Below are positions 4,251 through 64,000 of a stretch of 64,000 nt of DNA, one piece after another. Within the stretch, counting starts at the first letter, position 1. Every line of letters begins with the position of its first letter. A program made the translations under genes and the position numbers. The notes under the pieces were generated by a model. That model was not told where the DNA came from. It saw only the letters and a list, made by a program, of their open reading frames with translations, and did not search any database. The DNA is taken from contig OZ018337.1 of assembly GCA_963969495.1 (NCBI GenBank), positions 86,526,777-86,590,776 of the forward strand. Direction: 5' to 3'. Origin of the DNA: Ceratothoa steindachneri (taxonomy: Eukaryota > Arthropoda > Malacostraca > Isopoda > Cymothoidae).

Positions 4251-4252
4251 TA

Positions 4253-5161: not shown

Positions 5162-5163
5162 TA

Positions 5164-9105: not shown

Positions 9106-9141
9106 CAGCCCCGCAAAGAAAGAGAAGAGTGATTATCAGAT

Positions 9142-9270: not shown

Positions 9271-9354
9271 CCGTGAGAAACGATAGGATAAGATTGAGAA
9301 AATAGATCCCCCCTTTCAAGGCCGTATTAACCTAAATAGTCAAGCTTTATATCG

Positions 9355-9624: not shown

Positions 9625-9633
9625 TACCTACCT

Positions 9634-9952: not shown

Positions 9953-10170
9953 ATTCTGGTGTTTCCACTTCTCCTTGTGTGTTTAAAAATAGCTCTTCCT
10001 TAAGAAAAAAACAACTGAGTTAGCACTCTTAGAACTAAGCCTACTTCATCATAGAAGTAACTCACTCCCCTTAAAGAATAACACTACTAAAAGGGTGTCA
10101 AAGAATATAGTGATCAAAACCAAGGGTCATTCTACGACAATAAGTTTAAACGATCGACTATTTAGATTAA

Positions 10171-10368: not shown

Positions 10369-10704
10369 ACATTTCCCTTAAAGGTGCTCTTTAATTGTAC
10401 AAGTGATGTATATCTTCTACTTGAAATTTCTTAAATAACACCATAAAAAGTCAAGTTGGTTTAAATGCAATTAACGTGCGAGATACTTTACAGTACGTCT
10501 CCGTCTGACTCTGCGCAATACAGCGATTATGAAAGGTTTCAACAAGCCGAATTAAATGAAGAATTGATTACTCTTGTTGAAATTAAATGACCTCATCTCT
10601 CCATAAACGTTGAATTGCAGGAAAATCCTTTACTAAAAGCATCAAAAAAGAATGGAATTACCATTCCTTTGTAGAACAAGGTCTGATGGCCAAAAGGTCT
10701 CGTG

Positions 10705-10870
10705 TTATCACTTATTCTGTTTTATGACCTTACAACCATCAAAACTTTCCAAGTTTGCGGAATAAGCTTAAGATGACCTTGTTAATTATATGATTCGAAA
10801 GGAAATGTAAAACAACATAAAGGGTTCAAATTTTGTTAGAATCGGCTAACTATTAGTAAAATGCTATCTA
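10705..10870 (+). repeat. Dispersed ~200-bp repeat family, member a
   Basis: It contains CACTTATTCTG, TATGACCTTACAACC, TTCGAAAGGAAATG, TAAAACAACATAAAGGGTT and AGAATCGGC in the family order. Other members lie at 19,365, 23,525 (minus), 31,233 and 60,440 (minus). The members are too diverged for a clear end, and no coding capacity is seen. Confidence 0.7.
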
Positions 10871-19364: not shown

Positions 19365-19660
19365 GCAATTATATCAATCGAAAGGGATTTTAGAGCAAAA
19401 ATAAGGCTTTAATTTCGTTGGAAACGGCAGAATAATTATGAAGTCCTTACCAAATAATTTCCCGGTTAACCTAGAGAAGACTTTGGTAGTTATATCATCC
19501 GAAAGAAAATATAAATGAATTAGTAATTCCTGTGGCTATACTTTGCAAGACCTTGGCCATTATATCATTCGAAAGAGAATGTAAAACAACATAAGGGTTT
19601 TAAATTTCGTTGAATCGGCGGAATAGTTTTGATATTACCCAATCGCAAATATATACCCTT
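19365..19660 (+). repeat. Dispersed ~200-bp repeat family, member b (partly repeated in tandem)
   Basis: The family core occurs here more than once. GGCAATTATATCAATCGAAAG lies near 19,373, a diverged GTAGTTATATCATCCGAAAG near 19,487 and GCCATTATATCATTCGAAAG near 19,557. The last is followed by TGTAAAACAACATAAGGGTT and TGAATCGGCGGAATAG. The roughly 100-bp spacing suggests nested or tandem copies. Confidence 0.7.
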
Positions 19661-23524: not shown

Positions 23525-23740
23525 TTTCTGTCCGTCAATCCACGTTTTGCTTTTTTTGTAATAAGATTGTAACTATTCGTCGTATTCTTACGAAATTTAA
23601 AACCCTTATGTTGTTTTACGTTTTCTTTTAAATGATATAATTGCCAATGTCTTCCCAAGGTTAGTCCGGAAATTATTGAAAGTTTTGAAGGGTGTAAGGT
23701 TATAAATCAGAATAAGTGAAAGCACTTTGTTCATTAGACC
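23525..23740 (-). repeat. Dispersed ~200-bp repeat family, member c
   Basis: Read on the minus strand it starts with CACTTATTCTGATTTATAAC. It has CCTTGGGAAGACATTGGCAA and GTAAAACAACATAAGGGTTT, and ends with AAGCAAAACGTGGATTGACG and a GGACAG segment. It is the most complete copy. Confidence 0.75.
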
Positions 23741-26700
23741 TTGTATAACCTATATGAAAGGGTATAAATTTTAACTCCTTGTAATCTATGATCATGTAAA
23801 TTATTGCCTGTTTATAATACAATAGAAATTTGGTGATTAAAATTTATATCAAGGAATCTTTATATATTGACGCTAATTAATGATAGCCTTAGTTTTAAAA
23901 GATTATGTTTGTAGTTCTTATAGAATTAATTAATAAAACGATGTTATTATATAAAAGTTTTCTTCCGGATACGTGTCGAGTGAACATCGAAAAAGTATCT
24001 CCTTTCTCGCTCTTTCCCCATTATTTCTTCATTCATACCCTTCTTTGTTATTGGTTACATTTCAATGAATCTTTCCTCATATGAGGAAAATGTAATATTA
24101 GGGAGTGTTAATTCATCCTTATATTGTTTTACAGTATTTATTCGTTCCCCATAAAATGTGATCTAGCATCTCCTCTATCCATCTACAAACGCGCTAAAAG
24201 AGATAGTTTATTAACCCTTGACGCATTACATATCCTGGAGTACAGAGTTAAGTGTTTACATGCGTGTGGAGCTTAAGGAAAGGCTTTAAAGGGATTCAAA
24301 ATCATTTTAATCTTAATGCTACTTCTTCTTTTCCCCAGAGTCAGTTTACAATCAGTCAGTTTGAGTGGATAATTCTGCACCAGGGAGGTTATTTGCTTAA
24401 AACCGTTAATTGACTCCTCTGCCCTCCGTTTTAATTCTTTCGTCATTACCTAAATTTAATTCCCTCTTAGACTATATTTGTATTATTGCCGAACTTCGTT
24501 TAATGTCTGATGTAAAAAAGAAAACTCTATGAATGGAAATAAATTGCTTCTGTAGCTAATATAGATTAAACTATTGAAATGTATTAGAGTCAAATCGAAA
24601 GAAAGGACAGATAAGCTAAATTCTCATTACTAGTTCCTCTTTGGAGTCATTTTAAAATTACGATAGTTTTTCGATTATTAATGAGTAAAGGAAAAATAAG
24701 CAGAAATTTTTTTTGCTAAATTTGAACATCTTAATAATTCTGATCTCTTACAAGTGATATTTAGTACACATTAACTCACATGTATGATGTATAATCACGG
24801 CAAATTTCAATGATCTTTTCAGTACAAAATTTAACGCACAAATCAAAAAATATCGTGTCTAATTTGCTTGCTAGTGAGAGAATATTTTACTCTATCACAA
24901 GTTCAAAAGCGAAAAGTAGTGAATTATTGAACACAACGTAAAATATCGTCGTGGAAAAAACCTAAATTAAAATAGCTCTTTGAAATCAAATGATCGATGT
25001 GACGACCTTCCTGTTGGCGGACTGTTCTCGACCTCTTTTTTTATGAACAGTTTTCATTTTTCGAAATATTTCAATGTTGTAGGTTTTCCCTCACTCTTTA
25101 TTTTCTTTTGATTTTAATTTTCACTAAATTTATCTTATTAAATATAATTCAAATTCCTGAGAGTCCCAAATCTAGTAATTGAGGCGGGCCATTAGTTCTC
25201 GTCTCATTCATGTTTTTTTTCTATATTAATGAACAAACGAACAATAAAAAATTCTCATTTGAAATCATATTTTATAGAATTTCCCCCGTTCAAATAAATT
25301 TTAGACAATAAATTTAAGAAAGTGCGAAAACTATCACCAAGAAGACAACTCTATTTTTAAGACCCGTCATTAACCTTAGCTGATTTAATGCAGACGCAAT
25401 ATGGCAGCTTGAATGCCTCCACATCGCTCTACTCTACCTTCAGTCTATTTTTATTCAGCAGGAACTGTATCAATATCATTATTTCATATTTCCTATATTA
25501 TTAAATAAGAGAATATCGTCATTTTTGGCTATTTTGAACTAATCTCTCACCATCAAAACCGATAATATTAGATTGGTCCGTTCTGATTTAAAGCATATTG
25601 AGCAGCAGAAATTCTTGACATCAATACTTGAAAAGTCAATTTTAGGGAAAGCAAAAAGTTTCCTATTATTAAACGATCGTAATTACATATATTGTAGCAA
25701 GATTGAGTCTAAATTTTATTGCTTGAAAGGTTTATGTGCAAAGCTAATCTGAATTTAGGGAGGATGGAAGATTACTGAATCACATTCAAGCGTGGCTTTG
25801 CTAATTGAAATTATATTGGACCACTTTACATCATCATTTATGTATAAATAATAAACATGGTGGGCTAATAAGTCTTGAAATATCTTTATTATCTCTATAT
25901 TTCAGATCCAGAAACTATTTTATCATCTTCTGAAATTCATTTTAAACTACAGAGTTTCAAATTAAATAAATGAAATAGAAGCACAATCCATATGCTTCGC
26001 CCTACTTATAAACACGGAGACTAATGGTGGCAGCGTTATTGACCGAGGCATTGTTGGATGTTGTCTGGACAGATACCTTTATATTTCAGCCCTGGAACAT
26101 CATTAATATTAACCCAATGTAGACGATTGTGTCATTGCTAATCACTTTTAAGAGAGATACTTCACTTTTAGATGTGATGCCCAAACAAATAGGATTCCAT
26201 ATTTCCTTGAACAGGAGAAAAGGTAATATCGTGATCTGTCCTATCATTGACTTATTAGCTCTCCTACTTTGAACTCATAAGGCTTATAATACTCTTGGTG
26301 TTGCTTAAAGGAAAACCAACTAGGTGTCGCGAAATGTCAAGAACCTGCTAAAGGCTGTTGTCGTGGCTCTTATGTCTAACGACATCCTGAGTCATCTGAA
26401 CTCCCATGCTCTGAACTGAGCGTTCATACATTTCTTTCGATGAATTTGGAAAGACCGTTGTCGCCTGCGCTGCCCACCCCAAACTAATTTGTGTAGGGTT
26501 GCACGCGCAATAATCTTCATCTGTTAGGTAGGCTTATAATTATATTGTTGCCTCAGTCGGGTGTTATTATTGCTCCTCTCATTATTAGTATTTGTCTTCA
26601 TTATCACATATGATTCTCTTTGTCCGCCATGATCCTCATTAACAAGCATTTAATGGCGTTTTCCCTTCTTTGTGGCTGTCTGAAACCGCAGCCACGTCAT

Positions 26701-29700: not shown

Positions 29701-31232
29701 CTGCCTATCAGAAGAGCTTTTTTGTTCTTATTTGTTCGTATGAGTTATTTTATTAATTGCAATATTTAGGTTTTTTAATTAATCATGCGATTCATCTTGA
29801 CTTCTTTTTCCTTGCATTATATTTTTCATTTTTTCTTTGCAGTTCTAAGCATATTGGGTTAAATCTGATTGCGTCCTTGTCTTTTTTGTCAAATCTGTTT
29901 GTTGTCTCTTATTCTTCGTGTCTTTTCATCTGATGGTGTATTATATTTACATATTGCACGTTCTTGCATTATTTCATTAACACATGTCAGGTTTGACAGT
30001 GCAATTCAATTGGCCGTATTCTCTAGTTTTTTTGCTTAGTTGGTTATGAAACTTGTTGCCTACTTTTTGATTGTCTGGATTCTAACTATGTGAGCATTGC
30101 TTCATAATTTTACCGGGATTGTGACGTATAATAATATTGGGCAATGACAACGAGTTCCTTGCGGCGCTTATGGCAATCTCACCCTGTCATTCATGAGCTT
30201 CTCGAATAGTTGGCCCAGAAACTTCAGCAGCTAGATTTATTTATTTATTTCACATCGTTTATCTTCCTCGTTAACTTCTTATTAGGCCTAGATTGGCGTG
30301 GAAATTATAATCGGAATTTTAAAACGGGTGAAAAAAATGACAAGAACTATATGACTACTTTATTCTTAGGCACTGGTGTTGGGATCGTGTAGATCCTCCA
30401 AGTTGCAGCTATACCATCCAATCCCTTGTGGGTGAGCTTCAAAATGGGAGAGTAAATCTCTCTCAGTTGTTTGGGTTACCTTGAGTTTTTAAAAATGACC
30501 ATCTTCGCCTTTATTATCACTGACTTGAGATATCCTCTTTTCATGCCCTCTTGGATGTTGCTTGGGGCGTTTCTATGATGAAGTTTGGTATCCCGCTTCT
30601 TCCCAAAACATTTTGCGTGAAAATTTCAGTACCACCGAGGATTCTTCCTTTGTGATTGGTTTGCAATCCTTTAATGTATCTCCTCCTTCTTCATATACCC
30701 TTTCCTGGGGCATAAGGTCAACCTCTTGTATACACGTAGTATTCGGGTTTGCATGGTCATAGGAAGTATTTTTCTGGTGGGTAGTCGACAAAAATGTCAT
30801 TAATTTTCTTTCTAATTCTTCCTCTTTGTTAGTTTCTTGTTTAACGATATTTATCTTTTCTTAGGTTCGGATAATTTAATGGGAACTATATAGCACCTTT
30901 TTTGCCCCCCTCCCCTATCTAAACAGGCCCCTCTACTTATTCAATCCGAAATCGACCATAGCCAGTGACAAATTAAATTATGCTTTATCCATATGGGGTT
31001 AAGGATTCTTTCGCTCTTATTAATTGTCTCAGGTAAAATAAGACTTTACAAAGCTAATTTAATCTAAACTAACATACCTAAACTAACCTAACTCGAACAA
31101 TCATAAATCTCACCTGAAATGATGTGAGAAATATATTGGAAGTTGCATTGTATGAAAGGTATTTTTATGGAGATGCATAATTGGGAGAAAGAGAACATCC
31201 AATCTTATAGATTTAAACAAGCTCTGATGACC
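23741..31232. other. Long AT-rich region without recognisable genes
   Basis: About 7.5 kb. GC-richer patches near 26,330-26,520 and 27,690-27,880 were read in all frames and gave nothing recognisable. The frames at 27,653-27,895 (plus), 29,253-29,567 (minus) and 30,573-30,800 (minus) have no domain or repeat I can name. A diverged exon could be missed by eye. Confidence 0.45.
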
Positions 31233-31500
31233 ATATTCAGATGATCGCCCTTATTCTGATTTATGATCGTATTACGTCCTTCAATAATTTTAATAATTCC
31301 TAGAACTCCTTAGAAAGAGCTTGGTAGTTAAATCATTCCAATTAAGATGTAAAACCACATAAGGGTTTTAAATATCGTTAAATTCGTCCAAATAGTTATA
31401 ATCTTATTAGTAAAAATAGAAAAACAAATGGGAACCAACGCACGGACCGTCCGACCGACATAGTGAGATATAGAGAGGCACACGACTATAAATATTACAT
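31233..31500 (+). repeat. Dispersed ~200-bp repeat family, member d
   Basis: CTTATTCTGATTTATGATCG, then CTTGGTAGTTAAATCATTCC, GTAAAACCACATAAGGGTTT and ATAGTTATAATCTTATTAG follow in family order. The tail has GGACCGTCCGACCGACATAG and GAGATATAGAGAGGCACACG, which is shared with member e. Confidence 0.75.
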
Positions 31501-40633: not shown

Positions 40634-43367
40634 ATGGCATATAAAAATAGAGGCCTAACCATGCGTGAAGGGCCCTATGTGCTTACTGACAGTAGAAAAT
40701 TGTCGATCAAAAAAGTGCCAATAATAAAAGAGGATCTCCTTCAAATAAAAAAATGATATATTTTCATATTTCTCCTCTATTCTTTTTCATTTTATTTCAT
40801 GTTTGGTTGTTTATGTAGATAGTGATGGCTATTGGATTAAGTTGCTGGATTCTTTTAGTGTGGAAATGCAAAAACTATCTACCTATTAAATTTATATAAG
40901 CAACAAAGTAATTTTTTAGCAAAAAAATATAATTGCTATTACCATGACAATAGTTCATTACTGAACTGAAAGTTCAACATTACCATGTTAAGTATTTATA
41001 ATTTTGTGTTCAATTAAGCGACAATTGGCTGCATTATTACTAAAATATCAAAATATTTTGGTTTGCAAACTGTGTGGTGTAGAAGACTATGGATCAGGCG
41101 AGTGATAAGCTTTTATCGCTGAGAAGATACAAGAGACTTAATCTGGAACCGGATCTTGGACGAAGTTTGATTGATGTTAAACTATCCGACTCTAATTTTT
41201 CGAGCGTGGAGGAGTAGTTCGGTGTGGCATTTTCTTAATCTAACTCTTTAATCTCCTGAAGTTCCCTTAATATCCTTAGTAATTCGGCTGATTTCCACTG
41301 GAATTTCTAGATATTCCTTAAATATATCTTAATTTGGTGCTTGATATAGTAGGGTGGCCAAGAAAAAGTTTCACTAAATTCAGCTCTAATCTGAAATAAA
41401 TAAAAATTTGTAAACGACAAATTATATGTAGTCTTTATCAGCTCTGGAACTTGAAACAATATTTCCTCAATCATTTAGGTTCGCAAGAAATAGAGTTGAG
41501 TGTATGAGCATTAGCTTCACGTCGAAGCATCGATGCTCTTTGAACGTTCACCAAGGAAGTGGGAGTGCGTAGTCAATCCAACATTTCCAGATTAGTGATT
41601 AAATGATAAAGGCAAAAGCGAGAGAAGCAATGAAAACTCAGTAGAAAACTTACCATAAATTATAATTAAGAGTCAAAGAATATCAATCAGTTCAAAGAAA
41701 TAAGAGGAAAGCTCCATTCTTTGTCTTCTACATTGGAGAGAAGAAAATGAGGTTGTCAATACGCCTTGAGAGAGATCAAATTAATTAAAACAAGAAAACG
41801 CAGTTTCTCATAGAATGAGATCGCTCCGCTTACAAAGTTACTTTGCCTGTTTTCATTCCTTTTATCTGTCCTTTTTCAAATCTGCTTTGTAAAAATTATT
41901 AAGTTAAGAGCGGATACTACTCACGCTAGAGATGTTACGCTAGGACTAATAGAGTAAAAGGATATTATCTTACTCTTCCTGTATATGTTTCTGACATGCG
42001 TAGTAACCTTTGTCTAGTGCCATTTTTAATTGACACAAACACGAAAACTGACAGACTTAGATTGTGTCTGTCTTTCTATCCGCCCAATAGTGATGGACTG
42101 ATTTACTTTACATCAACCGACAGCGTGATTTATATTGCTAATTACCTAAAGAAAGCTAGATTAATTTTATGACAAACAATCTGATTTCAAAGATAAAACT
42201 GCAGTTTCGGAGTGATTAACATATAACCATAATGGAAATCTCAAATTCATTTCCTCGTAGCTCCTAGGCAGTCCTATTTCTCATTTCACCTTCAACCTAA
42301 CATTAACTTACCTTTGGATGTCACAAAAAGGTTAACAAAAGGAAAGGTGGCACTATCTGAACTCTGACAATCAATTTTGGACCAGATACGCTTAGATTAC
42401 GGATAAAGCAGATAGACGATTTCTAGACTATAGCAAGATGAGTGTTGAGAGATAAGTGACTACCAAATGTGAAACAGTTTTTAACAGAATTAAGTAGGGA
42501 AAGTGAGGAACCATCAATAGTAACTAATAGAGCACTAGTTTCACAGCGAGCAAAGTGCATAAGAATAAAGACCAATAAAGCCTCAGGGTTGATTTGGGTC
42601 AATTTCAGAAATATTGAATACTGATAGTGGAGGCAGCTAAAGAATACGATTAGCTGTAATCGAGAAATGTCATCGTCATAGAAATTGAATGGCTGGTTGA
42701 AGAAGATATAAGGGCAGATATAAAGGAAAAGGAGCTTAGCAGTAAACCCAAAAGCAACTACGTGGATTATTCTTGAACATATTTTTTGCCTCTTTAATTG
42801 ATCTATTTCAACAAATAATAAAAATTTCGTGGTAGGCTTTATTGAACTCTCTAGTTTAAATTATTACTTAATTAATCTAATAGTACCATAGATAAAGTGG
42901 AGCGCCTGTATAGATCAAGCAAAGGGTGAAATATGGTGATAAACATTGTTAAAAAACCTTACTTAAGGTTCATAATAGATCTATCAACTCATAATCGTCT
43001 ATTTAAACAAAGAATCCTAAACACATTGACCTAGTAATCGTAGCGCTAAAAATAACTGAGGAGCATCAAAGAAAACAAAACCAAACAAATAAAATAGTTT
43101 AAAATCATGAAATAAAAAATAACAATTGAAGTAAATCTTCTCTATGCAATAATTATCAAATAATACTGAAAAAATCAACTCCCCTTAAAAATGTCATCTA
43201 ATCTAGCAAACCTAAAATTTCCTGGGAATCATTTTGGTTGGTTGACACCACCGCACTTACATACAGCTGATCACCGTTAGCTACCATACATGCTTAATTA
43301 AAAGACAGTAAGCCGAAGTGGTTAAAATGTTATAGACGGGAAAAGAATAAACGAGAGTTGTGATATA
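40634..43367. other. No recognisable gene
   Basis: AT-rich. A 43-codon ATG frame at about 41,090-41,219 (MDQASDKLLSLRRYKRLN...) is protein-like in composition but matches nothing I know. Confidence 0.45.
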
Positions 43368-44288
43368 CGAGGGGCGGTCAATAAGTTTTACGAATCAGTA
43401 GGGCAAAACAGAGGAAGGGGGTTGGCTGTTTGTGGTGGTGTTAGGACCAGTTCTGTCAAGGTAAGGCTTGCAGCCGCACACTCCTGCTTCGTCTATTTAA
43501 CAAGCAGGAGCTTATTGCAAATCGTCAATCACAAATTTATAAATAATAGAAAAGGTTGAGCACCAGGCAGGGATTAAATTTTTGACCAAGGAAGGCAAGA
43601 ATGCAAAAGAGATCCATGAAGGCATGGTTGCAGTGTATACCGACACCGCCCCTTCCTATGCAACCATTGCTCGCTGGAATATGGAGTTCCGCCATGGTCG
43701 TGAGTCCTTTGAAGATGGCCCCCGTCCAAGACGCCCGTTAGATGTAACCAACGAGGACAATGAGGCCCGTGTGGAGAGGATGATCCTCGAAAATCGACGG
43801 GTGAAGGTCGAAGAAATCGAGCGAGATCTTGGAATATCAGATGGAATTGTTATCAACATCATCCACAACAATTTTTCCATGACCAAGGTTGGGTCCCTAG
43901 AAACCTGACGCGCCCTGATCGACTTCAACGTCGTCAAAGTCCACAAGGCCAGAGTTGCACAAGCTGCCCTGCGCGAGTGCGGTTCGAGGAGCTCAACCTT
44001 TCCCCCTACAGTCCAGAACTAGCCCCTAGCGACTACTTTTTATTCCCCCAGCTCAAGGCTGCACTGCATAGACGCTGGTTTGGGGACGATAAAGATGTCC
44101 AGCTCGCCGTCCAGGAGTGGATTGAACAGCAGTCGGGAGATTTCTGATTGTCGGGAATTTGAAGCCTCAAAGACAAGTGGCGCAAGTGCAGAGAAGTCAA
44201 GGGTAGTTATATTGAAAAATAATAAAATACTTTTCCTCACATCTCGTTTCTTTATACCCGAATTGCCAAGCTTATTGACCGCCCCCCG
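43368..44288 (+). mobile_element. Mariner copy B, internally deleted, 921 bp
   Basis: The ends CGAGGGGCGGTCAATAAGTT and AAGCTTATTGACCGCCCCCCG are inverted repeats, flanked by TA at 43,366-43,367 and 44,289-44,290. The internal deletion joins the LQRR region to VHKARVAQAAL at about 43,935, the same junction as copies A and C. The third catalytic Asp codon (AGC-GAC-TAC) survives near 44,030. It cannot encode an active transposase. Confidence 0.95.
43546..43908 (+). pseudogene. Mariner transposase N-terminal DNA-binding half
   Basis: The start codon seen in copies A and C is ATA here (43,546). From it the frame is open for 120 codons to TGA at 43,906. It covers the paired-like helix-turn-helix region, with IHEGMVAVYTDTAPSYATI, RWNMEFRHGRESFEDGP and EEIERDLGISDG in order. 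An intact DNA-binding half with no catalytic half could bind element ends if expressed; that is speculation. Confidence 0.85.
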
Positions 44289-44290
44289 TA

Positions 44291-45561
44291 TTTACCACTC
44301 AAATGACTCTTCTCTCTTATTCTAACCCGAAAGCTCACCCTTGATATATGATATAACTTCATTTGGCGTTAAATGATTAAAATCAAGAAGACAACAAAAA
44401 ACACTCACTCAAAGGCAAAATGATAACACAAATAAACAGAATCAAGTTGTGTTAAGTGAAGGTAGAAGGCAATTGAAGATAGTAAGGGAAAAAAAGGTTT
44501 GCATTGTTTGCCCGAGGGCCCTAAGTTTGCTCAACAGGGAAAGTGAATTCAATGTCAAAAGAAGAATTATATAAATAATGATGGAAGAACAGAGGTTAAA
44601 TTGTGTAAACATACTATAAAGAATAAAGAACAAACTTCCTCTTCTTTTGCAGGGACATCAAAATCCTGTGATGAAATGTCACGAATGATGAGAAAATTTT
44701 ATGAAAAATATTTATTGAACCTTTGACTGAGTTTATCAAAGAAAGTAATAGTTGATATTTTTCCATGACTTAACCTAATTACATTTTACATTAAAAAGTA
44801 ATACAAAATAAGTAGTCAAAAGGACAGACATTATTTAGAGGTAAATAATAAAAATCTTACGCCTTAAAATTAAAATTCGTTAAAATTATTGATGTTTATA
44901 TAGCTTGTTTTTCCTAAACCACATGCGAAATTATTAATTGAGCGTGACACAGACCCTAATTTAAATGAACGGTCATAGACCTGTCTAGCTTTTTCCAATA
45001 TTCAATAATAGAATTTATTTCTTTCTAATTAGTATTAGTTACGGTGTTTTGGATGTCACTTATATAAGATACATTTCATTCGTACTAATAGCCGTGCATT
45101 CAGTTATATCGTAGAAATATTTTTAAAAATAAAACATCAACAGAGCTAATATTAATGTTGGGGGCAGCATATTCTATGTATTTACATGAGGTTTACAAAA
45201 CAGTCAATTTCTCAAGATAACTATTTTCCATCTCGTTGAGATATCTGGAAAAAGCCTCGGCCAAATATCACCACAGTCGAAAAATCTTGGTCCTGAAACA
45301 ATTTATCTGTATTCATTTCAAAGAATTCTTGCGCTTCTTAGAAATCCTGTTCGGACAATCGGCGAAATTCCTTTCTCCTGAGTCGTAAACAACGATGTAA
45401 TATAATGGTTATCTAAGGAACCCCATTACTTTAAGTCAACAGACTATTTGTCCTTGTTTATATATTATATAATGAGATCGTAGTCTTCCCTATTAACCCT
45501 TATCCACTGACGTGAAACAAGGAGGGCCATGAATCATATATAACATTTTGAACTGCCTTGT
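44291..45561. other. No recognisable gene
   Basis: AT-rich spacer; only short frames such as 44,442-44,633 on minus. Confidence 0.5.
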
Positions 45562-46214: not shown

Positions 46215-46408
46215 TGATTCGTGTCGCAGAATGACCCTTGGTTTTGATCACTATACTCTCTGACACCCTTTTAGTAGCGGTATGCTTTAAGGGGCGTAAG
46301 TTACTTCTATGATGAAGTAGGCTTTGTTCTAAGAGTGCTAATTCAGTAGTTTTGTTCTTAAGGAAGAGCTATTTTTAAACACATAAGGATAAGAGGAAAC
46401 ACCAGAAT

Positions 46409-46725
46409 CTACCAAAATAAACTTGTATTTTAAATGAAAAACTTAACTATTACAAACCAACAGTTAACACATTTCTATCTTTGGCATCAAAGATCTTTCA
46501 ATGACAAAAAATAAACAAATAGGCTTACCGTAAACATACCAATTACTGATTAGTATTTTTTTATCGCGACTATTTGATTAGCGTTAAACATTAAATTAAC
46601 GTACTCTTGTCTACAAACACATATGACCTAGGTTCAAGAACAATGGTTTCTACTCTCCTTTAAAACGTGGGACGTACTAAACTTCTACTATCGCAATAGA
46701 CATATAAATGTTATTTTTAACTTAC
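46409..46725 (-). other. Candidate intron in element copy 2
   Basis: The GTAAGT donor (46,725-46,720) and TTTTGGTAG acceptor match copy 1. Length is 317 against 319 bases. Conservation of both signals in diverged copies supports a real intron, but it is not proven. Confidence 0.45.
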
Positions 46726-46735
46726 CCTGTAGGTA

Positions 46736-47005
46736 TTAGGGATTGCCGGATGTCACTGGATGACTTATCTCTCGCTTTGCAGTGTTGTGGCCGCTGGTTG
46801 AATTTTCGTCGATGAGGGATTGCTTGTCGCCTGTGACGGGGGCTGATTCTTCAACGTAATTAAAGAACGGGAGCTCGTTGGGGCTGAGTTCTTCTCCTCT
46901 CACTCTTACGGAGCTTGAGATGTGAGAGTCGCTCGAGTGTGAGTGGCTTTGCTTTTCTTCAGTCGGACTTCTTTGCAGACTGCAAAGGCTTCTTCGGTAT
47001 GGCAC
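46736..47005 (-). CDS. 89-residue Ser-rich protein of the unclassified element (copy 2)
   Basis: Intact ATG-to-TAA frame with the same length as the copy at 9,355-9,624. It differs at 11 residues, for example Leu4 to Arg, Leu56 to Pro and Leu76 to Ala. There are no indels and no stops in either copy. Function is unknown. Confidence 0.45.
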   Translation of the reverse strand: MPYRRSLCSLQRSPTEEKQSHSHSSDSHISSSVRVRGEELSPNELPFFNYVEESAPVTGDKQSLIDENSTSGHNTAKREISHPVTSGNP

Positions 47006-47099
47006 CGATATAAAGCTTGACTATTTAGGTTAATACGGCCCTGAAAGGGGGGATCGATTTTCTCAATCTCATCCTATCGTTTCTCACGGAAATAGTCTT

Positions 47100-47360
47100 G
47101 TATGGCTAAAGGATCGATCTTCACGAACTGACCCTTCTTCTGGCGTATCGACTTCTAATCTTCTTGTCTGGCTGAAAGATCGATCTTCACGAACTAATCT
47201 TTCTTCTGGCGAATTGACTTCTAATAATCTTCTTGTCTGGCCGATGGATCGATCTTCACGAACTAATCCTACTCTGGCGTATCGACTTCTAATAATCCTC
47301 TTGTCTGGCCGATGGATCGATCTTCACGAACTAATCCTACTCTGGCGTATCGACTTCTGA
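47100..47360 (-). repeat. 66-69-bp tandem repeat, four units
   Basis: The GGCGTATCGAC block (GGCGAATTGAC in one unit) occurs at about 47,142, 47,208, 47,277 and 47,343. GATCTTCACGAACT occurs once in each unit. Copy 1 has two units. The last two units here are nearly identical, suggesting recent expansion. Confidence 0.85.
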
Positions 47361-48196
47361 TAATCCTTCTCTCTTTCTTTGCGGGGCTTATTAATAGGCG
47401 GATTGCCGCCCCATTTAAAGGGATGAGTGACCAGGCCACAGAGGTAAAGGGGGGGGGAATGATGAGTTAGCATCTGGGGGGAGCGAGAATTCCTGAGGTG
47501 GCACTGGGGTGCCCAAGTCAGCTCGCACATTTGAGGCTCACAACCGCACCGCTACTTGTCGTGCCTTCTGACTCGCACCGCTTTTTTTCCATAACCACGG
47601 GTTTATGGGTCTCGTAGGTAATTGGATCGTTAGAGCGTCGTTTAAGGACCTTAGGTGGTCGCTTTAAAACAGATGTTAGCTCCAACTGCCCACAGCAGCG
47701 GGGAGATTACACATGGTAAGCCGTTTGGCCGGCTACCTTTCCCACGCTTCTCCTCATGAAGGGGGGGGGGCTTTAATATACCTATACTCCTCAAGGATGC
47801 TGAATGTAGCCATTTCTACACAATTCGTATCCCATATTAGAGGAACCCACTTGCAATTCAACTTCACTATGACTTCCATCACATGTAGGTTGCTGAAGTA
47901 AATTTCGTTCAGAAGAAACTATACACATTACACGCTTTTAATTCTTTTAACTAAGTGTAAGAAAATGAAAGACCTGACAGAAGAGGAGTGGAAAGCTTGT
48001 AGGGATATTCTGATTTTCTTCAACATTTTAGCGTTTGTCAGTTGACAGCTCCTTTAACAGACTAAGTGATTTTCTTCTCTTATATGAAGTGGGTTTTTTT
48101 AAGTCTAGCTTGATATAATGATTTATTTTACTTTTAAACTCAAATATACCGATTTCAAATAATTTCATTGAGTGTACAGGATCAATTAATTTACCT

Positions 48197-48619
48197 TTAC
48201 TTTCTGTTAAAAGTATTCTTTACAACTATTTCTTTGTTGCTTTGATAATTATATAAATCGAATTGCTCAATAAAAGATGGATATGATTTACCGTTTGTCA
48301 TCTGCTGAATGAAATAGACACAAAACAAGCCACATGAGTTTGAAAGATAACTTTGAACCCTGAATGGATTGACAATACTAATTTTATTTATTTTTACTAA
48401 GTTTTTACGAATATAAACATGATTCTAAAACCCTAGACAAAGGCTGTCGAAATAATACAAACGTTTTTTGTTAACAAACAAAGCGATCCAATGCCTCCCA
48501 GGTCTATGGCTGTTGTCCAGATTAATTATATTAGCTGTTGACGGTTTTAAAGGTAAACATAGATCACTGTCTCTCGCAAAATATCCACGAAAAACTCGTT
48601 TTATTTTATCTCGATACAA
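48197..48619 (-). pseudogene. PRO: Polinton adenain-like cysteine protease, one in-frame stop
   Basis: This protease family cleaves capsid precursors during maturation. The frame opens at ATG (48,619) and runs to TAA at 48,197, 140 codons, with a single TAG (48,425) after 64 codons. The catalytic His lies in PGRHWIALFV, with YYFDSL following. The catalytic Cys lies in YLSNSCGLFCVYF near 48,315, in the same frame beyond the stop. Length and spacing match the small adenain-like proteases of these elements. Apart from the stop it looks undamaged, in contrast to its neighbours. Confidence 0.85.
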
Positions 48620-48666
48620 TAGTTCTCATATTTCTAATGAATTCATTTTATTAAGAATAAACTAAT

Positions 48667-49420
48667 ACGTTCCTAGATTTATCTATCTCAATAACAGACT
48701 GAAACTGTGCATATATAACAAGGAAGACTGGTTCTATTAATGGAGATTTAAATTGTACTGATAATGTTGTCTGTTGCATTCTCCAACTCAAGTAGTACAC
48801 TTGTCCTGATTTAGGCTAATACGATAAATATTTTTACTTTTTATAAATTGTTTATACGTATATTCAATACTCTGCCCAACTCCAATACACCCTAGACCAT
48901 TATATAACGAGTAAAAAGCCAATAATGCAACTGGATCTGTATCGTCCGAATATTCTAATTCAAATAGTCTTTCGACTTATGTTGTGAGAATAAATCAGCA
49001 TATAGTCTCCCATACTCCCTTTTTCTAGAGTAATATCCTGCAGTGGAAAGAAAAGTAGATTTTTCTTCTTCAGTATTTTTTAACAGGGGTCTCAAAATAT
49101 GCAGGATAGGGGTAATTATTTCCAATCGAATTTACAGATGTTTCCTTTAAATAAATATCAACATTGGTGAACAAAGTTTAAATAATATTATATTCTGGAA
49201 AAACATTCTCCCCACCCAGAAGTTGGCTTCCATTTGACTTCACAATTTTTTTTTAATATAAAGATAAACCTCACTAAGCTCTAAATAATACTCTCTGTTA
49301 TCAAATACATAATATTCAACCCGTGTGAGGTCGCAAGAGATATTGCTGAAGGGAGAAAAATCTAATAATTGCTTTCAACAAAGGAAGTTTGGGTTGGTGG
49401 AGTTCTGTCTTCGAACAGAT
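48667..49420 (-). pseudogene. MCP: Polinton major capsid protein remnant
   Basis: Three segments match this double-jelly-roll capsid family (F54H12.2-like proteins of invertebrates). The N-terminal PPTQTSFVESNY lies at 49,400-49,365. A middle segment with DPVALLAFYSLYNGLG lies near 48,960-48,900. The C-terminal part reads FKSPLIEPVFLVIYAQF and then EIDKSRNV at about 48,690-48,667. The family's usual coding length is about 1.3 kb and only about 750 bp is present, so there are large internal losses as well as frame changes. The assignment rests on the two terminal motifs. Confidence 0.6.
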
Positions 49421-49678
49421 ATCAATTGTTGGATCAAGGGCATTCATATTACACGTGTCAGATTTACAGCCGTTAATATATTTAAGAGCAAATCTATGTA
49501 ATGTCTGATGGTTTATATTATGAGAAAAAAACATCCCCAGCATCATCATCATCTATTTTTAACTTTCTTCTATTCCTCAACTTCTTATTCATCCATTATC
49601 GCTTATTTATTACACCTATTTTTTTTATTTATTCTAATTATCTCTCTCAGATATTAGCTATCTTCTAATATACTGTCT

Positions 49679-49870
49679 AATATCTTTAGTGATATTATTT
49701 TTTACCCTTCCCAGTGGGTCTCTCCAAGTTTGCTTCGCACTCTTTCCATGCACAATATCCTCATCAGTATCGAAACCGGCTTAAATAGCCTTCCTTCCTA
49801 GATTACGAACACCACGCTTTAGATATGGTGCTGCATTTCTGAATGAGAAAGAGAAGAGGGATCCAAGATC
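49679..49870 (-). pseudogene. Small basic core-like virion protein remnant of the Polinton
   Basis: The minus-strand reading has LGSLFSFSFRNAAPYLKRGV, then RNLGRKAI, a stop, and DEDIVHGKSAKQ. Short basic proteins of this pattern (G-S-x-F then APxLKRG and LG) lie next to capsid genes in Maverick/adintovirus-like elements. They are compared with adenoviral core or pVI-like proteins. The role is inferred from pattern and place. Confidence 0.5.
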
Positions 49871-50026
49871 ATGTTCCCTTCACTATCTCAATCCTTTATA
49901 CACGCGTGGTCATTCAACATTTTTAATTATCGTTTAATATTTACTCCTATTGTGTAGTTTTATCATCACAGGACCAAGAAAGAATTGAAATCTTTCCCCT
50001 TCAACCGTTCTTATATAAATAGAAAT

Positions 50027-50705
50027 TTATCTCAAGTTCCCAGAGCTTAGAGTCAGATAGTGTGGATTATCAAAGGTTATACTGAATGAAACATTATTGA
50101 AAGGAAAATGAGTAATTCTCATCAGCCTCGACTCTGTCCAGCCTATTAACTGATAGTCTACAAGGTTAGAGTAAATGTAACATGATTTCAGATGAGATAT
50201 AAGAAGAATAAAATCTATATTGAACGCTATACAATGATTTAATTTTGGCCTATCATCTCTAAAAGATCTTTTCATTATAGTGTAAAATTCTTTTGACAAA
50301 TGAATTAATAGATTTTCTTTCCTTTTCACAATGCTCAATGAACCTGAAGTGAGCATTACCATATAATCCGAAAGCATTTTCCGTTGCTTTGTGTCAGATT
50401 AAAACATTAAATCTTGAGATGATAAGTTCTGTTTAATTTTCAGATTCAATTTCTCTATGAGTGCTTTTTGATTTTTGTAATATCCAGCGTCTATCTATAT
50501 CTCATCGTAAGCTTAGTCCTCTTGCCAATATAGTATTTGATGAATAGTTGTTTACTTCCGCGATTTTTCGATAGACTGTGAATGCGTGTGTAGACTTAGT
50601 AACATTATAGATATTCTCTGTAAATTGAAACTCACAAAGACTTACTTCATACTGCCTGTGATTTGTTATTATGGATTTGTGCAACTCGATTCTATAGTCG
50701 GACAT
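50027..50705 (-). pseudogene. Polinton virion-module protein remnant (possible minor capsid)
   Basis: Two frames appear to belong to one protein. The N-terminal part (50,705-50,502) has HRQYEVSLCEFQF in the position of the YEVALxEI motif. The C-terminal part (50,377-50,027) has SCYIYSNLVDYQLIGW and FDNPHYLTLSSG. This combination recurs in an invertebrate protein family encoded beside Maverick capsid genes. Whether it is the penton or another virion protein is not settled here. Confidence 0.5.
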
Positions 50706-51099
50706 GGTATTTTGAGGGTAAACATCCGTAAAGGGACGAGGAAGGAAGGGTTACATAAATACTCTCTGGCTCAATATTCACAACTGATATAAAACCTTCC
50801 ACATCTCCCACCTTTATATAATTTTATGAATGTATTTGCTCAAGAATTTAAGATGATATCACATCCCTTGATATATGAGTTAAACGATTCTGGGTATCTT
50901 TGCTACTTTACTAAATATAGCTTATTTTTCCATGCCCTTTCGCTTTAACTATCTTCTCCATTACATATTCCTTACGGGAGTAAAATTTTACTTTTTTAGT
51001 TCTTCGTAATAAACTCCACCTTCAATATGTTCCTCATTTAAATCTTCGATATAATACAGATCTAATACATTCAAAAAAATTTATATCTTGTAGAGTTAC

Positions 51100-51883
51100 T
51101 CACTCTACCCTATTTCGTACCCTTTTTAAATTTAATGAAAACGCTTGAGATTCGAACATAATCACCGATCTTATATAGAAGCCTCTCTTTTTACCTTCAG
51201 CTCTCTGCTTTGGTAGAGCAACATCGTGTATAACTTTGAACGGTGTGCTACCAATCATACTATGTTTAGAATTATTATAAGCCTTTGCAAAATCATCTAA
51301 TACATCGATGTATTTCCAGGTATTATTAAAAGTAAAGTATATGAAAAGTCTTTCCTCTATTGTTCTTTGTAGCCGGTCTACAAGATTAGCTTTGTTTAGA
51401 GAGTGAACATGATAAATGCCGATATTACATTCGCTTAATAAACGTTGCATCTTATTTCCTTTAAACTCTCCTCCATCATCAAAACATTTAAAAACATGGA
51501 TCCATCCGGATTTTTCTGAGATTTCTTACAGCCTTTGACTCTACCTGGTCCGTCTTCTGCTTTATTGGAATTAATCAGAGATATTTAAAATATACGTCAA
51601 TTACGAAGAGTATCTTTCGTAGACCATAATCAAAACTTTCATATTTGGACATCACAGTTAACTCTAGTTGCAAAATTTCGTTAGAGCCTTGCGCTTTTAC
51701 GTGTTTAGTCTTGAATCTTTTTCTAATGGGTTTATGTAATGTATAGCTATCCAAGTCTGAGAGAAAGCTTTCCACATCAGATCCTTTGGTGATCCTTTTT
51801 ACAGATTGGTGAAGTCGACTTACCCCACCAAAAGATGGTGGTAGACTCGGGGATGCATATAAGAGTAACAATCGACGATTCAT
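51100..51883 (-). pseudogene. INT: Polinton retroviral-type integrase remnant
   Basis: The reading starts at ATG 51,883 with SFGGVSRLHQSVKR and YTLHKPIRKRFKTKH, the N-terminal part. The core follows with SKYESFDYGLRKILFVIDVY. The frame is broken between 51,575 and 51,450, where DDGGEFKGNKMQ (about 51,480-51,447) supplies the second catalytic Asp. The C-terminal frame (51,450-51,100) has NNTWKYIDVLDDFAKAYNNS and SMIGSTPFKV. At the first catalytic position the family has W-Q-x-D and here it is LQLE (Glu codon 51,664-51,662). At the third it has VERF and here it is VDRL (near 51,380). It is certainly inactive. Confidence 0.85.
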
Positions 51884-52069
51884 TTCTAACTAAATATCTG
51901 ACTAGCTTACACTCTTATATAACTATTCAATGAAAAGAGATCTTATTTTAAAATCCAATTTCATTTTACATCTAGATTAAAATACATAATTATAAGTAGA
52001 ATTTCATAGATGTTCGCAACCTTATTACTTTATACACATTTACTGATTTTCTGAATCAATAGAGCTGGA

Positions 52070-52692
52070 TTAACCTAAAAACAGAAGGTTTTTTATATGA
52101 TCCAGTATTTGAATAAAAATATTGGTTAAACAATTGTGCTCTGATGAAATATTATTTCTATCTTGTCTAAACTTAAACTTTTTTCTTGCAAGTCTTGATA
52201 ACGCAATGGTGACGTAGTCGTAATGATCCCTGAGGACAAACTCTTTCACAAGGTTCATACTCTTTCCCCTATTGTCGAGAAAACAATGGAACTCATCAAA
52301 CGAGATATTTTTTTTATATACTCAACTTCTGTGATGGTTGTTTTAAGTTTTCGCCATTCATCAAGTCCATCGTTGAATGTAAGATAACAGACATCAACCG
52401 CATTCTGTAAGCATTTTATTTGACGAAAACTTTGATGAAACTTGTCTTCAAGTTTTAGAAAAGTGTTGAGTTCATACTGATTGTGCAGTGCAATTTTAAA
52501 TCGTGTAGGAATGAACTCTTCATCCCTTTTCCAGGAAATACTGAAATGGATGCTTGGAAATAGATTGTTAGGGTTGGCCTCCACTACACACTTTAACTGC
52601 TTTACACCGTAATTCTTTACCAAACGATCAACATAGGGAAAATTTTCCTGTTTTAACCTGTGTATGGCAGCAAACAAAAAGCCAAAATTCAC
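52070..52692 (-). pseudogene. Unrecognised frames within the Polinton
   Basis: A 145-codon frame (52,692-52,255) and a 62-codon frame (52,258-52,070) overlap by ATGA. A third reading across the overlap (DEFHCFLDNRGKS, then MNLVKEFVLRDHYDY) suggests one original protein split by a frameshift. It is soluble-looking and has no known motif. It lies between the integrase and ATPase-side genes, so it is presumably an element gene, but I do not recognise it. Confidence 0.4.
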
Positions 52693-53439
52693 CCTAACTA
52701 AGGAAAAGTTTATTGTTATAGCAGGTTATTTCATAGGTATTTTCAAAGATCACTCTAACATTATCAAAAGGCTGACAATATTAATTTTATATTCTTGCTG
52801 TGTAATTTACCTCACCTGGAATCGAGACATAGCTTCTTACGCGTGAATATTCGTGTGAATTTGCACAGACAGTAAGAAAAAAAGTCATTAGGATATGATT
52901 TCTCTGACGCGGTTTGAATTTCCAGGTTTTTTCATGTATTAACATAAGAATGGATTTGCCAAGTCGCCTTTTGCAATTATTTGATTGGACCGTCTAATTG
53001 TCATTTATATCAGTGAAATTGATTAATAATTCAACCAGTTCCCTATTTTGGTGTTGTTGGCGATAGTGAGAAATACGACGTGTGTTTGCGCAAACCCTTG
53101 AGGTTGAAGTGGAAGAAGTTAATGCATGAGTAATATCTTCTAATTCTTTCCAGCGTTGCGAATGTTTTATAATAGATTTAGAGAATTTGTAAGATATTAA
53201 CTTCGCTCTTACTTCTTTCCAGAAGAGGGGTGGTGGTCTTTTCCAGGTTCAAGTTAAATCATTTAGGAGGTCGATAATGTTAGATTGTGGAGCCTTTTAA
53301 CGTCGATTGTAATTACCCCATTATTATCCCAACTGCATCTTTCTGTATTTTTTAATGTCTAATAAATTACTCTACTCCTTTAACGAACATTTGTCTCCTG
53401 TGTTCCGAGTACTTCATCTGCATATTCGTTTATTTGATC

Positions 53440-53760
53440 CCTATCATTCTGGTTAAAATTAGCGGTAGGTGAGTTTACCACCTTATCATACTGTTCTTAA
53501 TAATGTTCCAACGTGTTCTGATGAAGTATAATACGTATATATGGTGGTATGTGTGGATTATTGAGTAGAGTAGTCAATTCTATCTCCAAAGATAAAAGTC
53601 TTTCTTGAGTTGGTATTAAGTTTGAGGGTAGCTCAATGTGAGAGAAGATGTGTTAGAACAGGGAATAAGATTGGTAGAAACGATCCTCCACTCTGATTTA
53701 TTATATTTTTCTTTAGACTTATATGGCTAATCTTCCAAGCTAACATATGTATCAACTGTC
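53440..53760 (-). pseudogene. Small Polinton protein remnant, possibly PW-type
   Basis: The minus-strand reading contains TQERLLSLEIELTTLLNN and then ILHQNTLEHY, a stop, and EQYDKV. This resembles the helical L-x-x-IL-N ... Y-x-x-x-L-x-x-Y pattern of a short Maverick protein found near the ATPase. The similarity is weak and rests partly on context. Confidence 0.35.
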
Positions 53761-53929
53761 TGGGCGGCTATATCTTTCGTTTCTATGATGCTGTCATTGG
53801 AACATTACCTTTTATTAGATTAAGACACATTTGAAAAAATCACCCTCCATGATTCCTATGATTGATTTTTTCTTCTTTTTAGAAAGTGTAGGGAAGGCAT
53901 GGAAGAGATACGCGTATCTTTTCATTTTA

Positions 53930-54400
53930 TGGTTCATTCTAAAAGATATACAGTTTCAACTTCGTTTGAAAATATAGAGGTCCGTAAGGAAAATCGTACA
54001 GGGTTCTCGGAGTGGAGTTGCAGGGCAAGTAGCCATAAGGTTTTAAGACTGCTTCTTTCTATATCTTCATAAAGATCTGACGTTCACCCAGCATTATTTG
54101 TCCAGTAAGTATATTTATCTGGGAGATGTCTCTTCTCTGGTTAAATAAAACTAGATTGTGACAACATACGGCTATATCACGCATATGTATAAGACTTTTT
54201 ATAAAATAGATTTTGATCCACTAGGAATATGGTGATATGCTTATGGTGGGAGGTAACTCTAAATATCTCTGTTATATTTGCATCTATCTTCTACATTAAG
54301 TCATCTAAAATAAGAAATGTATGATTTTTTCCATCTAGAGATGACACATTGTCTCTCTCTGACATTCATATTGTTTAAAAAAGTCACACTCTCTTTCACG
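53930..54400 (-). pseudogene. ATP: Polinton packaging ATPase (FtsK/HerA-type), C-terminal half
   Basis: The Walker B region reads HTFLILDDLM (54,325-54,294). It is followed by SHHKHITIFLVDQNLFYKKS, the family's SHH-N-x-S-x-x-x-x-Q-N-L-F segment (to 54,192), and PYGYLPCNSTPRTL near 54,040-54,000. The N-terminal half with the P-loop is missing: the sequence meets a transposase relic at about 54,402. The enzyme would pump element DNA into capsids. Confidence 0.75.
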
Positions 54401-54401
54401 C

Positions 54402-54880
54402 TTCCACCGACGTACACCTAAGCAACAACCAGCACGTCTTCGAGGTCCACTACGGGTAAACGACCAAGCGCCCACCATCCATGAAGAAGCTAGGACACGT
54501 GCCTAAGAATGGCGAGAAGATGCCTTAGGTGTGGTTCGCTGTTGTTCCTACGAAAGTCCTCCCCGTGGAGAAACTGATCACAAAGAATGAGACTATATCT
54601 TTCAACAGGACGGTCCATTGGCTTACACAGTCAAGCACGCGCAATAGTTGTTGAGGTGGAACATAAACTTATTATGTTCGAAGGAATTTTGGCCGCTGCA
54701 TTCGACAGACCTCAATTCCCTCGAATATAGCTGGTAGGCGTAAGTCGAAGGAAAGTTCTGCAAAATCCACTATAGCAAGGTGAACAAGCTTCGACAAGCA
54801 CGAGTGGGCCCGCTTGATTAATGCTTTTGTTTACAACATGGGTTTGACTTTCGGGTCTAGCATTTAGTTTCTGCTTGCCG
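54402..54880 (+). pseudogene. DD37-type (maT-like) mariner-superfamily transposase relic
   Basis: Plus-strand frames give KNGEKMP near 54,505, then TKVLPVEKL. FQQDGPLAYTVKHAQ starts at 54,600 (second catalytic Asp codon 54,609-54,611), and FWPLHSTDLNSLEYSW ends at 54,734. The last motif corresponds to W-P-x-S-P-D-L-N-P-L-D-Y-S-x-W, so the third catalytic position is the Glu codon at 54,723. That is 37 residues after the second Asp, which fits the ITmD37 group. Stops at 54,645 and 54,729-54,740 region and missing N-terminal parts make it inactive. It appears to have interrupted the Polinton ATPase gene. Confidence 0.75.
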
Positions 54881-54954
54881 ACCGGGTGGCTCTATTGATT
54901 ACTACAACAATGTATACACATACATGTATGTTAAAACAATAAAATTCTTTCTAA

Positions 54955-60439: not shown

Positions 60440-60700
60440 GACCAATTTTTCCGTTTTTAGTCGTGAGCGTCTCTCTATCTCAATTTGTGAGGCTGTCTGT
60501 CATTCGGCACCCATTTTGCTTTTTTATTGATTTGGTAATAGCATCATTACTATTTGGCCAATTTTAGAGAAATTTGAAACACTTATGATGTTTTACATTT
60601 TTATTTGAGTAATATAATTGACAAGGTCCTCCAAGGTAAGGGCTGGAAATATTGAAAGTTTGAAGGTCGTATTCACTTCATCAAAATACTCACTCAATTT
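60440..60700 (-). repeat. Dispersed ~200-bp repeat family, member e
   Basis: Read on the minus strand: TTCAAACTTTCAATATTTCC, CCTTGTCAATTATATTACTC, GTAAAACATCATAAGTGTTT and then GGCCAAATAGTAATGATG. The tail has GACAGACAGCCTCACAAATT and GAGATAGAGAGACGCTCACG, shared with member d. Confidence 0.7.

Positions 60701-63197: not shown

Positions 63198-63245
<48 letters not shown>
63198..63245. repeat. (TA)n microsatellite, ~24 units, containing the mariner C insertion point
   Basis: Pure AT alternation ending directly at the mariner terminus. The last TA (63,244-63,245) serves as the insertion dinucleotide. Confidence 0.95.
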
Positions 63246-63246
<1 letters not shown>

Positions 63247-64000
63247 GATAGACGGTCAATAAGTATTTCTAATCGGTAGGGCAAAAAAGAGGAAGGGGGA
63301 TGGCTATTTGTAGGGGTGTTAAGACAAGTTATGACCATTCGGGACCTGCAACCGCACGCTTCTGCCTCGTCTATTTAAGAAGCACTAACTGATCGCAGAT
63401 CGTAAGTCACATATTTTTCCACAATGGAGAAAGGTTGAGCACCACGCAGTGATCAAATTTTGGCCAAGGTAAACAAGAATGCAAAAGATATCCATGAACG
63501 CATGGTTGTAGTGTACATCGGCACCGCCCCTTCCTATGCTACCATTGCTCTTCGGAAAGGGGAGTTCCGCCATGGTCGTGAGTCCCTTGAAGATGACCTC
63601 CGTCCAGGACGCTTGTCAGACGTGACCAGCGAGGACAATGTGGCCCGTGTGGAGAGGATGATCCTCGAAAATCGACGTGTGAAGGTAAAAGAAATCGAGC
63701 GAGAACTTGGAATATCACATGGAAGTGTTATCAACATAATCCACGACAATTTGGCCATGACCAAGGTTTCTGTCCGTGGGTCCCTAGAATCCTTACGCCC
63801 CATTATCGACTTCAACGTCGTCAAAGTCCACAAGGCCAGAGTTGAACAAGCTGCCCTGCGCAAGTGCGGATTTGAGGAGCTCAACCATCCCCCTACTTTC
63901 CAGATCTGGCCCCTAGCGACTACTTTTTATTTCGCCAGCTCAAGGCTGCACTGCGCGGGCACCGGTTTAGGAACGATAAGGATGTCCAGCTCGCCGTCCA
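63246..64000 (+). mobile_element. Mariner copy C, internally deleted, cut by the window end
   Basis: The left end CGATAGACGGTCAATAAG is a slightly worn version of the termini of copies A and B. The start codon is at 63,424 and an extra A shifts the frame four codons later. The helix-turn-helix half is recognisable (EIERELGISHGSVINII). The sequence then runs from the LQRR region into VHKARVEQAAL near 63,830, the same deletion junction as A and B. The third catalytic Asp codon survives near 63,917. The right end lies outside the window. Confidence 0.93.

What the first reader, a model, noticed from the sequence alone, without database searches (positions are those of the whole stretch)
48197..54400. 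Collinear Maverick/Polinton relic with six or more recognisable genes
Seen in sequence: ATPase, integrase, capsid, small core-like and protease motifs on one strand in a single 6.2-kb block. Established knowledge: this gene set defines Mavericks/Polintons and adintovirus-like elements. Inference: a once complete virus-like element inserted here and decayed; polymerase B and both termini are missing from the window.
Basis: partly seen in the sequence, partly recalled or inferred. Interest (0 to 1): 0.75.

Follow-up and report, generated by a model that had tools for sequence, protein, structure and literature searches.

The report
Decayed Maverick/Polinton virus-like transposon copy
This is a broken fragment, with both ends lost, of a Maverick/Polinton (a giant virus-like transposon) from a large family of such elements in a multi-gigabase genome; it is real, but of a known kind.

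Summary
Confirmed, and ordinary in kind. Window 47,936-54,352 (minus strand) is one old, truncated copy of a Maverick/Polinton family in a 3.93-Gb genome. Six of six other copies stop matching at 54,349-54,352. At the other end seven of ten stop at 47,936-47,942, three earlier. In order: ATPase C-terminal part, two unnamed frames, integrase with chromodomain, frames at minor capsid, small core-like and major capsid positions (about 450-490 bp lost in the last), adenain-like protease. The integrase is certain (119 of 120 listed outside relatives match, best E 2e-43). The protease rests on repeated sub-threshold Pfam hits plus position; the capsid names on position only. Other copies show what is missing here: divergent DNA polymerase B, terminal inverted repeats (three of four copies) ending AGTAGT, 6-bp target duplications (two of three), spans of 13.8 and 16.1 kb. 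The copy is about twice as diverged as six relatives (K2P branch 0.078 against 0.028-0.046). The family is large: 150 of 150 scored hits, 1,532 candidates.

The parts
47936..54352 (-). Whole Maverick/Polinton relic as bounded by homology to other genome copies
   Evidence: 5' limit 54,349-54,352 in 6 of 6 copies; 3' limit 47,936-47,942 in 7 of 10, 48,008, 48,169 and 48,221 in the other three
53943..54350 (-). C-terminal part of the packaging-type ATPase gene; about 70-96 N-terminal residues, with the P-loop region, cut off at 54,352
   Evidence: tblastn from L013 and L014 frames, E 1e-24 and 3e-24; hhhhDD motif in window piece 54,294-54,365; Pfam TerL_ATPase only E 0.17 in the window and 0.013 in L014, both below cut-off, none in L013
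53792..54006 (-). Small frame overlapping the end of the ATPase segment in another frame; unnamed
   Evidence: tblastn from L014:2605-2883, E 2e-18
53017..53490 (-). Unnamed frame A (position of PM/PZ in published vertebrate Mavericks)
   Evidence: tblastn from L013 frame E 6e-59; no meaningful Pfam hit
52202..52830 (-). Unnamed frame B (position of PM/PZ)
   Evidence: tblastn from L014 frame E 2e-61; no meaningful Pfam hit
50855..51922 (-). rve-type integrase, broken into several frames, with C-terminal chromodomain part
   Evidence: 119 of 120 listed relatives match; rve and Chromo above cut-off in L013 and L014
50012..50726 (-). Two frames at the position of the minor capsid (penton) gene; name by position only
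   Evidence: tblastn from L014 frames E 6e-35 and 8e-60
49521..49909 (-). Small core-like frame at the position of PW; name by position only
   Evidence: tblastn from L013 frame E 4e-39 and L014 frame E 2e-15
48899..49540 (-). Frame at the position of the major capsid gene, with about 450-490 bp lost between about 49,021 and 48,978; name by position only
   Evidence: tblastn E 3e-35 from L013; 10 of 10 copies carry 485-507 bp where the window has about 33-62
48218..48613 (-). Adenain-like cysteine protease, with an in-frame stop
   Evidence: Pfam Peptidase_C5 E 0.079 and 0.0083 on the two adjacent pieces in profile order; 0.0035 and 0.009 in two other copies, all below the curated cut-off; tblastn E 5e-53 from L014
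47936..48147 (-). Non-coding stretch of the element beyond the protease, cut off before the terminal repeat
   Evidence: shared wholly or in part with 8 of 10 copies, 78-87%; not with L013 and L014

Best explanation
A Maverick/Polinton of about 14-16 kb inserted here long ago. By inference from other copies it was flanked by terminal inverted repeats and a 6-bp target duplication, and replicated with its own polymerase B and integrase. The copy then decayed: frames broke, about 450-490 bp of the capsid-position gene were lost, and both ends were removed, at 54,352 inside the ATPase (with polymerase and left TIR) and at about 47,936 before the right TIR. The result is an inert 6.4-kb fossil. 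Shown: homology block, its limits, gene order, integrase and chromodomain, family polymerase, TIRs and TSDs. Inferred: capsid genes, mode of amplification, and that it makes nothing today.
For: Integrase: window against 120 outside relatives, and rve over cut-off in four other copies, Chromo in two. Protease: Peptidase_C5 in four pieces from three copies. Polymerase beside L013: DNA_pol_B_2 E 2e-10 and 3e-22; the same frames found divergent upstream in 3 of 4 further copies, while the fourth (C4:156.82 Mb) keeps only the frames next to them. TIRs in 3 of 4 copies, ends AGTAGT, TSD in 2 of 3. Genome-wide integrase-protease order. Gene order equals the published modules ATP-PM-PZ and INT-mCP-PW-MCP-PRO (PMC8097293, abstract and Results part 1 read).
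Against: No Pfam rve hit and only sub-threshold protease hits on the window pieces themselves. PDB sequence searches did not settle the protease: African swine fever protease E 0.92, Salmonella SseL E 0.042, and no cysteine protease for the L014 frame. No family name for the capsid-position frames; a single-sequence fold of one was useless (pLDDT 47.6). No relatives found in eight IMG/VR scans. A canonical P-loop is lacking or altered in the six copies read.
Confidence: 0.96

Rival explanations
1. A simpler integrase-type DNA transposon (Ginger-like or other rve transposon) or an LTR retrotransposon relic, with the other motifs read in by chance.
For: rve-type integrases, some with chromodomains, also occur outside Mavericks (PMC2836005 abstract start, PMC5803895 section); window pieces alone gave no rve hit.
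Against: Polymerase B, protease and ATPase-like frames share one block across copies, with TIR and 6-bp TSD.
Confidence: 0.02
2. A domesticated (exapted) Polinton fragment kept by the host for one of its genes.
For: Frame B keeps a 156-aa open piece and integrase a 141-aa one. An inverted near-identical second copy exists.
Against: Each of the eight gene segments shows a frame change or in-frame stop, and the copy is the most diverged of the seven compared. The duplicate spans tens of kb, so it is not specific to the relic. No expression data.
Confidence: 0.02

Closest known systems
Vertebrate Mavericks (Nino Barreat and Katzourakis 2021, PMC8097293; abstract and Results part 1 read)
   Same: Gene order within modules as far as named here; (AGT)2 end motif; 6-bp TSD; most copies degraded; intact elements 12.7-24.6 kb.
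   Different: Here ATPase and the two unnamed frames share the strand of the integrase module and polymerase B alone is divergent; integrase has a chromodomain; copy number may exceed the maximum of 287 reported there (150 verified here, 1,532 candidates).
Sf Mavericks of Spodoptera (PMC5803895; INT section and passages read)
   Same: Maverick integrase with C-terminal chromodomain; adenain-like protease.
   Different: Different host and sequence; that paper called the chromodomain new for Mavericks in 2018.
Polintons/Polintoviruses (Krupovic 2014, PMC4028283; abstract and Findings part 1 read) and Adintoviridae
   Same: Polymerase B, RVE integrase, cysteine protease, an ATPase candidate, and frames at the places of the capsid genes.
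   Different: Capsid folds could not be tested here.

Membership tests
Maverick/Polinton | rve-type integrase | tested here: met
   in the window; in copies
Maverick/Polinton | type B DNA polymerase | tested here: met
   Family: DNA_pol_B_2 in L017 and the same frames upstream in 3 of 4 more copies. Window copy: not met, 0 of 6 frames beyond the ATPase of two relatives match
Maverick/Polinton | adenovirus-like cysteine protease | tested here: met
   Peptidase_C5 repeatedly, each below the curated cut-off of 21.3 bits; not among the 25 families shown of 32 for 100 of 118 other window pieces; PDB searches did not confirm it
Maverick/Polinton | FtsK-like packaging ATPase | tested here: inconclusive
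   TerL_ATPase E 0.013 and 0.17, below cut-off, none in L013; hhhhDD motif in L014, the window piece and two of three further copies, not L013; GPTSSGK without a following S/T in three of six copies, altered in the other three
Maverick/Polinton | double jelly-roll major capsid and single jelly-roll penton | tested here: inconclusive
   Frames at the right positions; no meaningful Pfam or PDB match; fold unusable
Maverick/Polinton | terminal inverted repeats | tested here: met
   3 of 4 other copies with both flanks fetched, 81-84%; not found in the window (0 of 6)
Maverick/Polinton | 6-bp target site duplication | tested here: met
   2 of 3 copies, read by eye at the ends printed; not testable in the truncated window copy
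Adintoviridae | adintovirus-type MCP and integrase clade | not tested
   no reference sequences on hand; a passage in PMC10120064 calls Polintons and Adintoviruses largely synonymous

The most novel reading that the evidence does not exclude
The family may be a Maverick lineage that multiplied to well over a thousand genomic copies as a transposon while still carrying capsid-position genes, and whose ATPase already had a non-canonical P-loop in the copies that spread (no S/T after GK in the six copies read; Pro at that place in two clear cases). That would make it a natural test of when a virus-like element stops packaging.
Probability: 0.12. Interest if true: 0.45.

Novelty: new member of a known kind. 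Interest (0 to 1): 0.22.

Why it matters
It shows that a reader can recognise a heavily decayed Polinton from sequence alone. It also places a large Maverick family, with some copies keeping long open frames, in a multi-gigabase genome, useful for dating virus-like invasions. The window copy itself is a fossil of a well-described kind.

Tried and rejected
Direct Pfam scans of 27 selected window pieces of the relic and a PHROG scan of ten: only weak protease hits and one weak ATPase hit. Window integrase pieces against the protein database, phage records and PDB: nothing meaningful. The intact L014 integrase against PDB: only weak chromodomain and foamy-virus integrase matches, E 0.05-0.8. Eight IMG/VR scans and one of prokaryote genomes: no relatives. 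Own-genome search with the Pfam protease model: 0 matches at E<=0.001 (its 14 control genomes also gave none); a copy's own protease frame gave 150. TIR in the window: none (25 of 29 inverted pairs shown, those all A+T-rich). A single-sequence fold of window 50,030-50,398 and its PDB comparison were discarded as meaningless. That 54,353-54,860 is a mariner-type transposase was my reading by eye; Pfam did not confirm it. A P-loop search with [AG]x4GK[ST] found one match, of doubtful place, in six copies; a looser look found GPTSSGK-like stretches in some.

Host identity (hemocyanin family search) and the repeat status of the 54,360-54,900 flank could not be answered, because the genome search machine was busy.
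Full report
Setting. ARAGORN found no tRNA gene. The window carries mariner-type relics (HTH_48 E 1e-6 at 43,543-43,905) and lies at C37:86,526,777-86,590,776 of a 3.93-Gb genome in 529 contigs.

Direct look at the window. Stop-to-stop pieces on the minus strand from 54,365 to 48,200 are short and shift frame. Pfam on ten chosen pieces gave no rve hit. The two adjacent pieces 48,428-48,625 and 48,200-48,424 hit Peptidase_C5 at E 0.079 and 0.0083, at profile positions 17-53 and 92-118, in the right order; the second also has weaker hits to two other families. Further pieces gave only TerL_ATPase at E 0.17 or nothing. In a control of 100 of 118 other window pieces of 66-160 aa, Peptidase_C5 is not among the 25 families shown of 32 (seven not shown). 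PDB searches with the two protease pieces gave African swine fever protease at E 0.92 and the deubiquitinase SseL at E 0.042. Thus the window alone gave suggestive evidence. Its integrase pieces found nothing meaningful in the protein database, IMG/VR, phages or PDB.

Other copies in the same genome. The integrase piece 51,578-51,889 gave 1,532 first-look candidates; 150 were scored and 150 match, weakest E 6e-38 at 69% identity (the 150 include the window itself and its duplicate). Ten of the ten other non-duplicate loci fetched with that call align to the window around the integrase at 80-94% in pieces. A protease frame of another copy gave 2,465 candidates, 150 scored, 150 match. DNA_pol_B_2 gave 1,630 candidates, 91 scored, 150 matches, several per locus and possibly from more than one family. 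These lists are capped, so true copy numbers are unknown; 150 integrase and 150 protease places are verified. Among the two lists of 150, 29 integrase-protease pairs lie within 12 kb with the protease downstream on the same strand, 1 upstream and 0 on opposite strands; about 0.14 are expected. Of the 29 spacings, 15 are 3.7-3.9 kb; the window's is 3.36 kb and its duplicate's 3.30 kb.

Identity of the genes. Natural open frames of copies L007, L003, L013 and L014 hit rve at E 2e-11, 4e-9, 3e-8 and 1e-9, all over the cut-off; L013 and L014 also hit Chromo over the cut-off. The L014 integrase has 151 relatives at E<=0.001, 120 listed, the best 44% identical and labelled Armadillidium vulgare, unverified contaminant. 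Of these 120, 119 match the window region by tblastn, best E 2e-43, in several frames across 51,883-50,849. Peptidase_C5 recurs at E 0.009 (L013) and 0.0035 (L014), still below the curated cut-off; the L014 frame finds no cysteine protease in PDB. The ATPase frame has a TerL_ATPase hit at E 0.013 in L014, none in L013, and nothing relevant in PDB. A hhhhDD motif is present in L014, in the window piece and in two of three further copies, absent in L013; shuffles of the L013 and L014 frames show it in 15 and 36 of 2,000. A GPTSSGK stretch occurs in L034, L036 and L037 with I or P instead of S/T after GK; it is altered in L013 and L035 and shortened in L014. The capsid-position frames have no database name; I name them by position from PMC8097293 and PMC4028283.

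Mapping and limits. tblastn of L013 and L014 frames onto the window gives eight gene segments in one order and strand, plus a small frame overlapping the end of the ATPase segment. Family homology stops at 54,349-54,352 in six of six copies whose own sequence continues. At the other end ten copies were compared: seven stop at 47,936-47,942, L032 at 48,008, L014 at 48,169, L013 at 48,221. All ten carry 485-507 bp at the capsid-position gene where the window has about 33-62. Near 48,156/48,147 six of the eight copies that match further carry another 162-4,044 bp, two none. Beyond 47,936 lies a different repeat, 46,222-47,825, whose other window copy is 8,665-10,139 (84%).

Family architecture. 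Beside L013 two natural frames hit DNA_pol_B_2 at E 2e-10 and 3e-22 on the opposite strand. The same frames occur divergently upstream of the ATPase in three of four other copies; the fourth keeps only the adjoining frames, which have no polymerase hit in Pfam. Inverted repeats of 173-321 bp at 81-84% flank three of four copies; the fourth (C8) shows only 46-57-bp matches. The ends of the three read AGTAGT. A 6-bp duplication is read by eye at the printed ends in the C38 copy (CACAAT) and the C6 copy (GACATG), not in the third. Spans, insertions included, are 16.1 and 13.8 kb. Published vertebrate Mavericks share the (AGT)2 motif, 6-bp TSD and size range. The layout differs: here polymerase B faces away, and ATPase plus two unnamed frames share the strand of the integrase module.

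Age. On a block of about 0.8 kb, K2P terminal branches are 0.078 for the window and 0.028-0.046 for six of the ten copies compared (L013, L014, L026 and L030 were not put in). The window copy is thus the oldest or fastest-decayed of these seven, which are not a random sample. No calendar age is claimed.

Judgement. The finding is confirmed. It is a new member of a known kind: decayed copies are the rule (96% of 3,511 loci in vertebrates). Maverick integrases with chromodomains are in print (PMC5803895, INT section), and large expansions are known (Trichomonas, hundreds of elements, passage in PMC10120064; Maverick-rich parasitoid wasps, passages in PMC6035795; Mavericks across molluscs, passages in PMC10294476). 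I did not find a report of this family; my literature searches (listings seen) could not be aimed at the host, which is unnamed.

Noticed in passing
window 35,724-64,000 and beyond: Repeated in inverted orientation about 5.6 Mb away at about C37:80.957-80.995 Mb, 97-99.8% identical in the stretches compared (8.4 of the next 10 kb after the window included): recent inverted segmental duplication or assembly duplicate.
   Followed up: partly
window 46,222-47,825 and 8,665-10,139: A 1.6-kb repeat in two inverted copies (84%) with 66-68-bp tandem units; the first lies close to the relic's 3' break.
   Followed up: no
window 4,248-5,167; 43,363-44,294; 63,241-64,000: Three 81-84% similar copies of a mariner-type element (HTH_48 in the second).
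   Followed up: no
window 10,676-10,859; 19,520-19,637; 23,544-23,757; 31,203-31,425; 60,454-60,684: Short dispersed repeats 66-79% alike, SINE- or MITE-like in size.
   Followed up: no
window 54,353-54,860: G+C-richer stretch (up to 0.52) at the 5' break of the relic; plus-strand frames look mariner-like by eye, not confirmed by Pfam.
   Followed up: partly
L034, L036, L037, L013, L014, L035: P-loop of the family's ATPase lacks the usual S/T after GK or is altered in the six copies read.
   Followed up: partly
G000 C17:117.87 and 118.02 Mb: Polymerase B matches inside open frames of 1,170 and 1,257 aa, the longest in the list; not examined.
   Followed up: no
L017:3531-4058: Helitron_like_N domain (E 4e-47) near the L013 element's polymerase end.
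   Followed up: no
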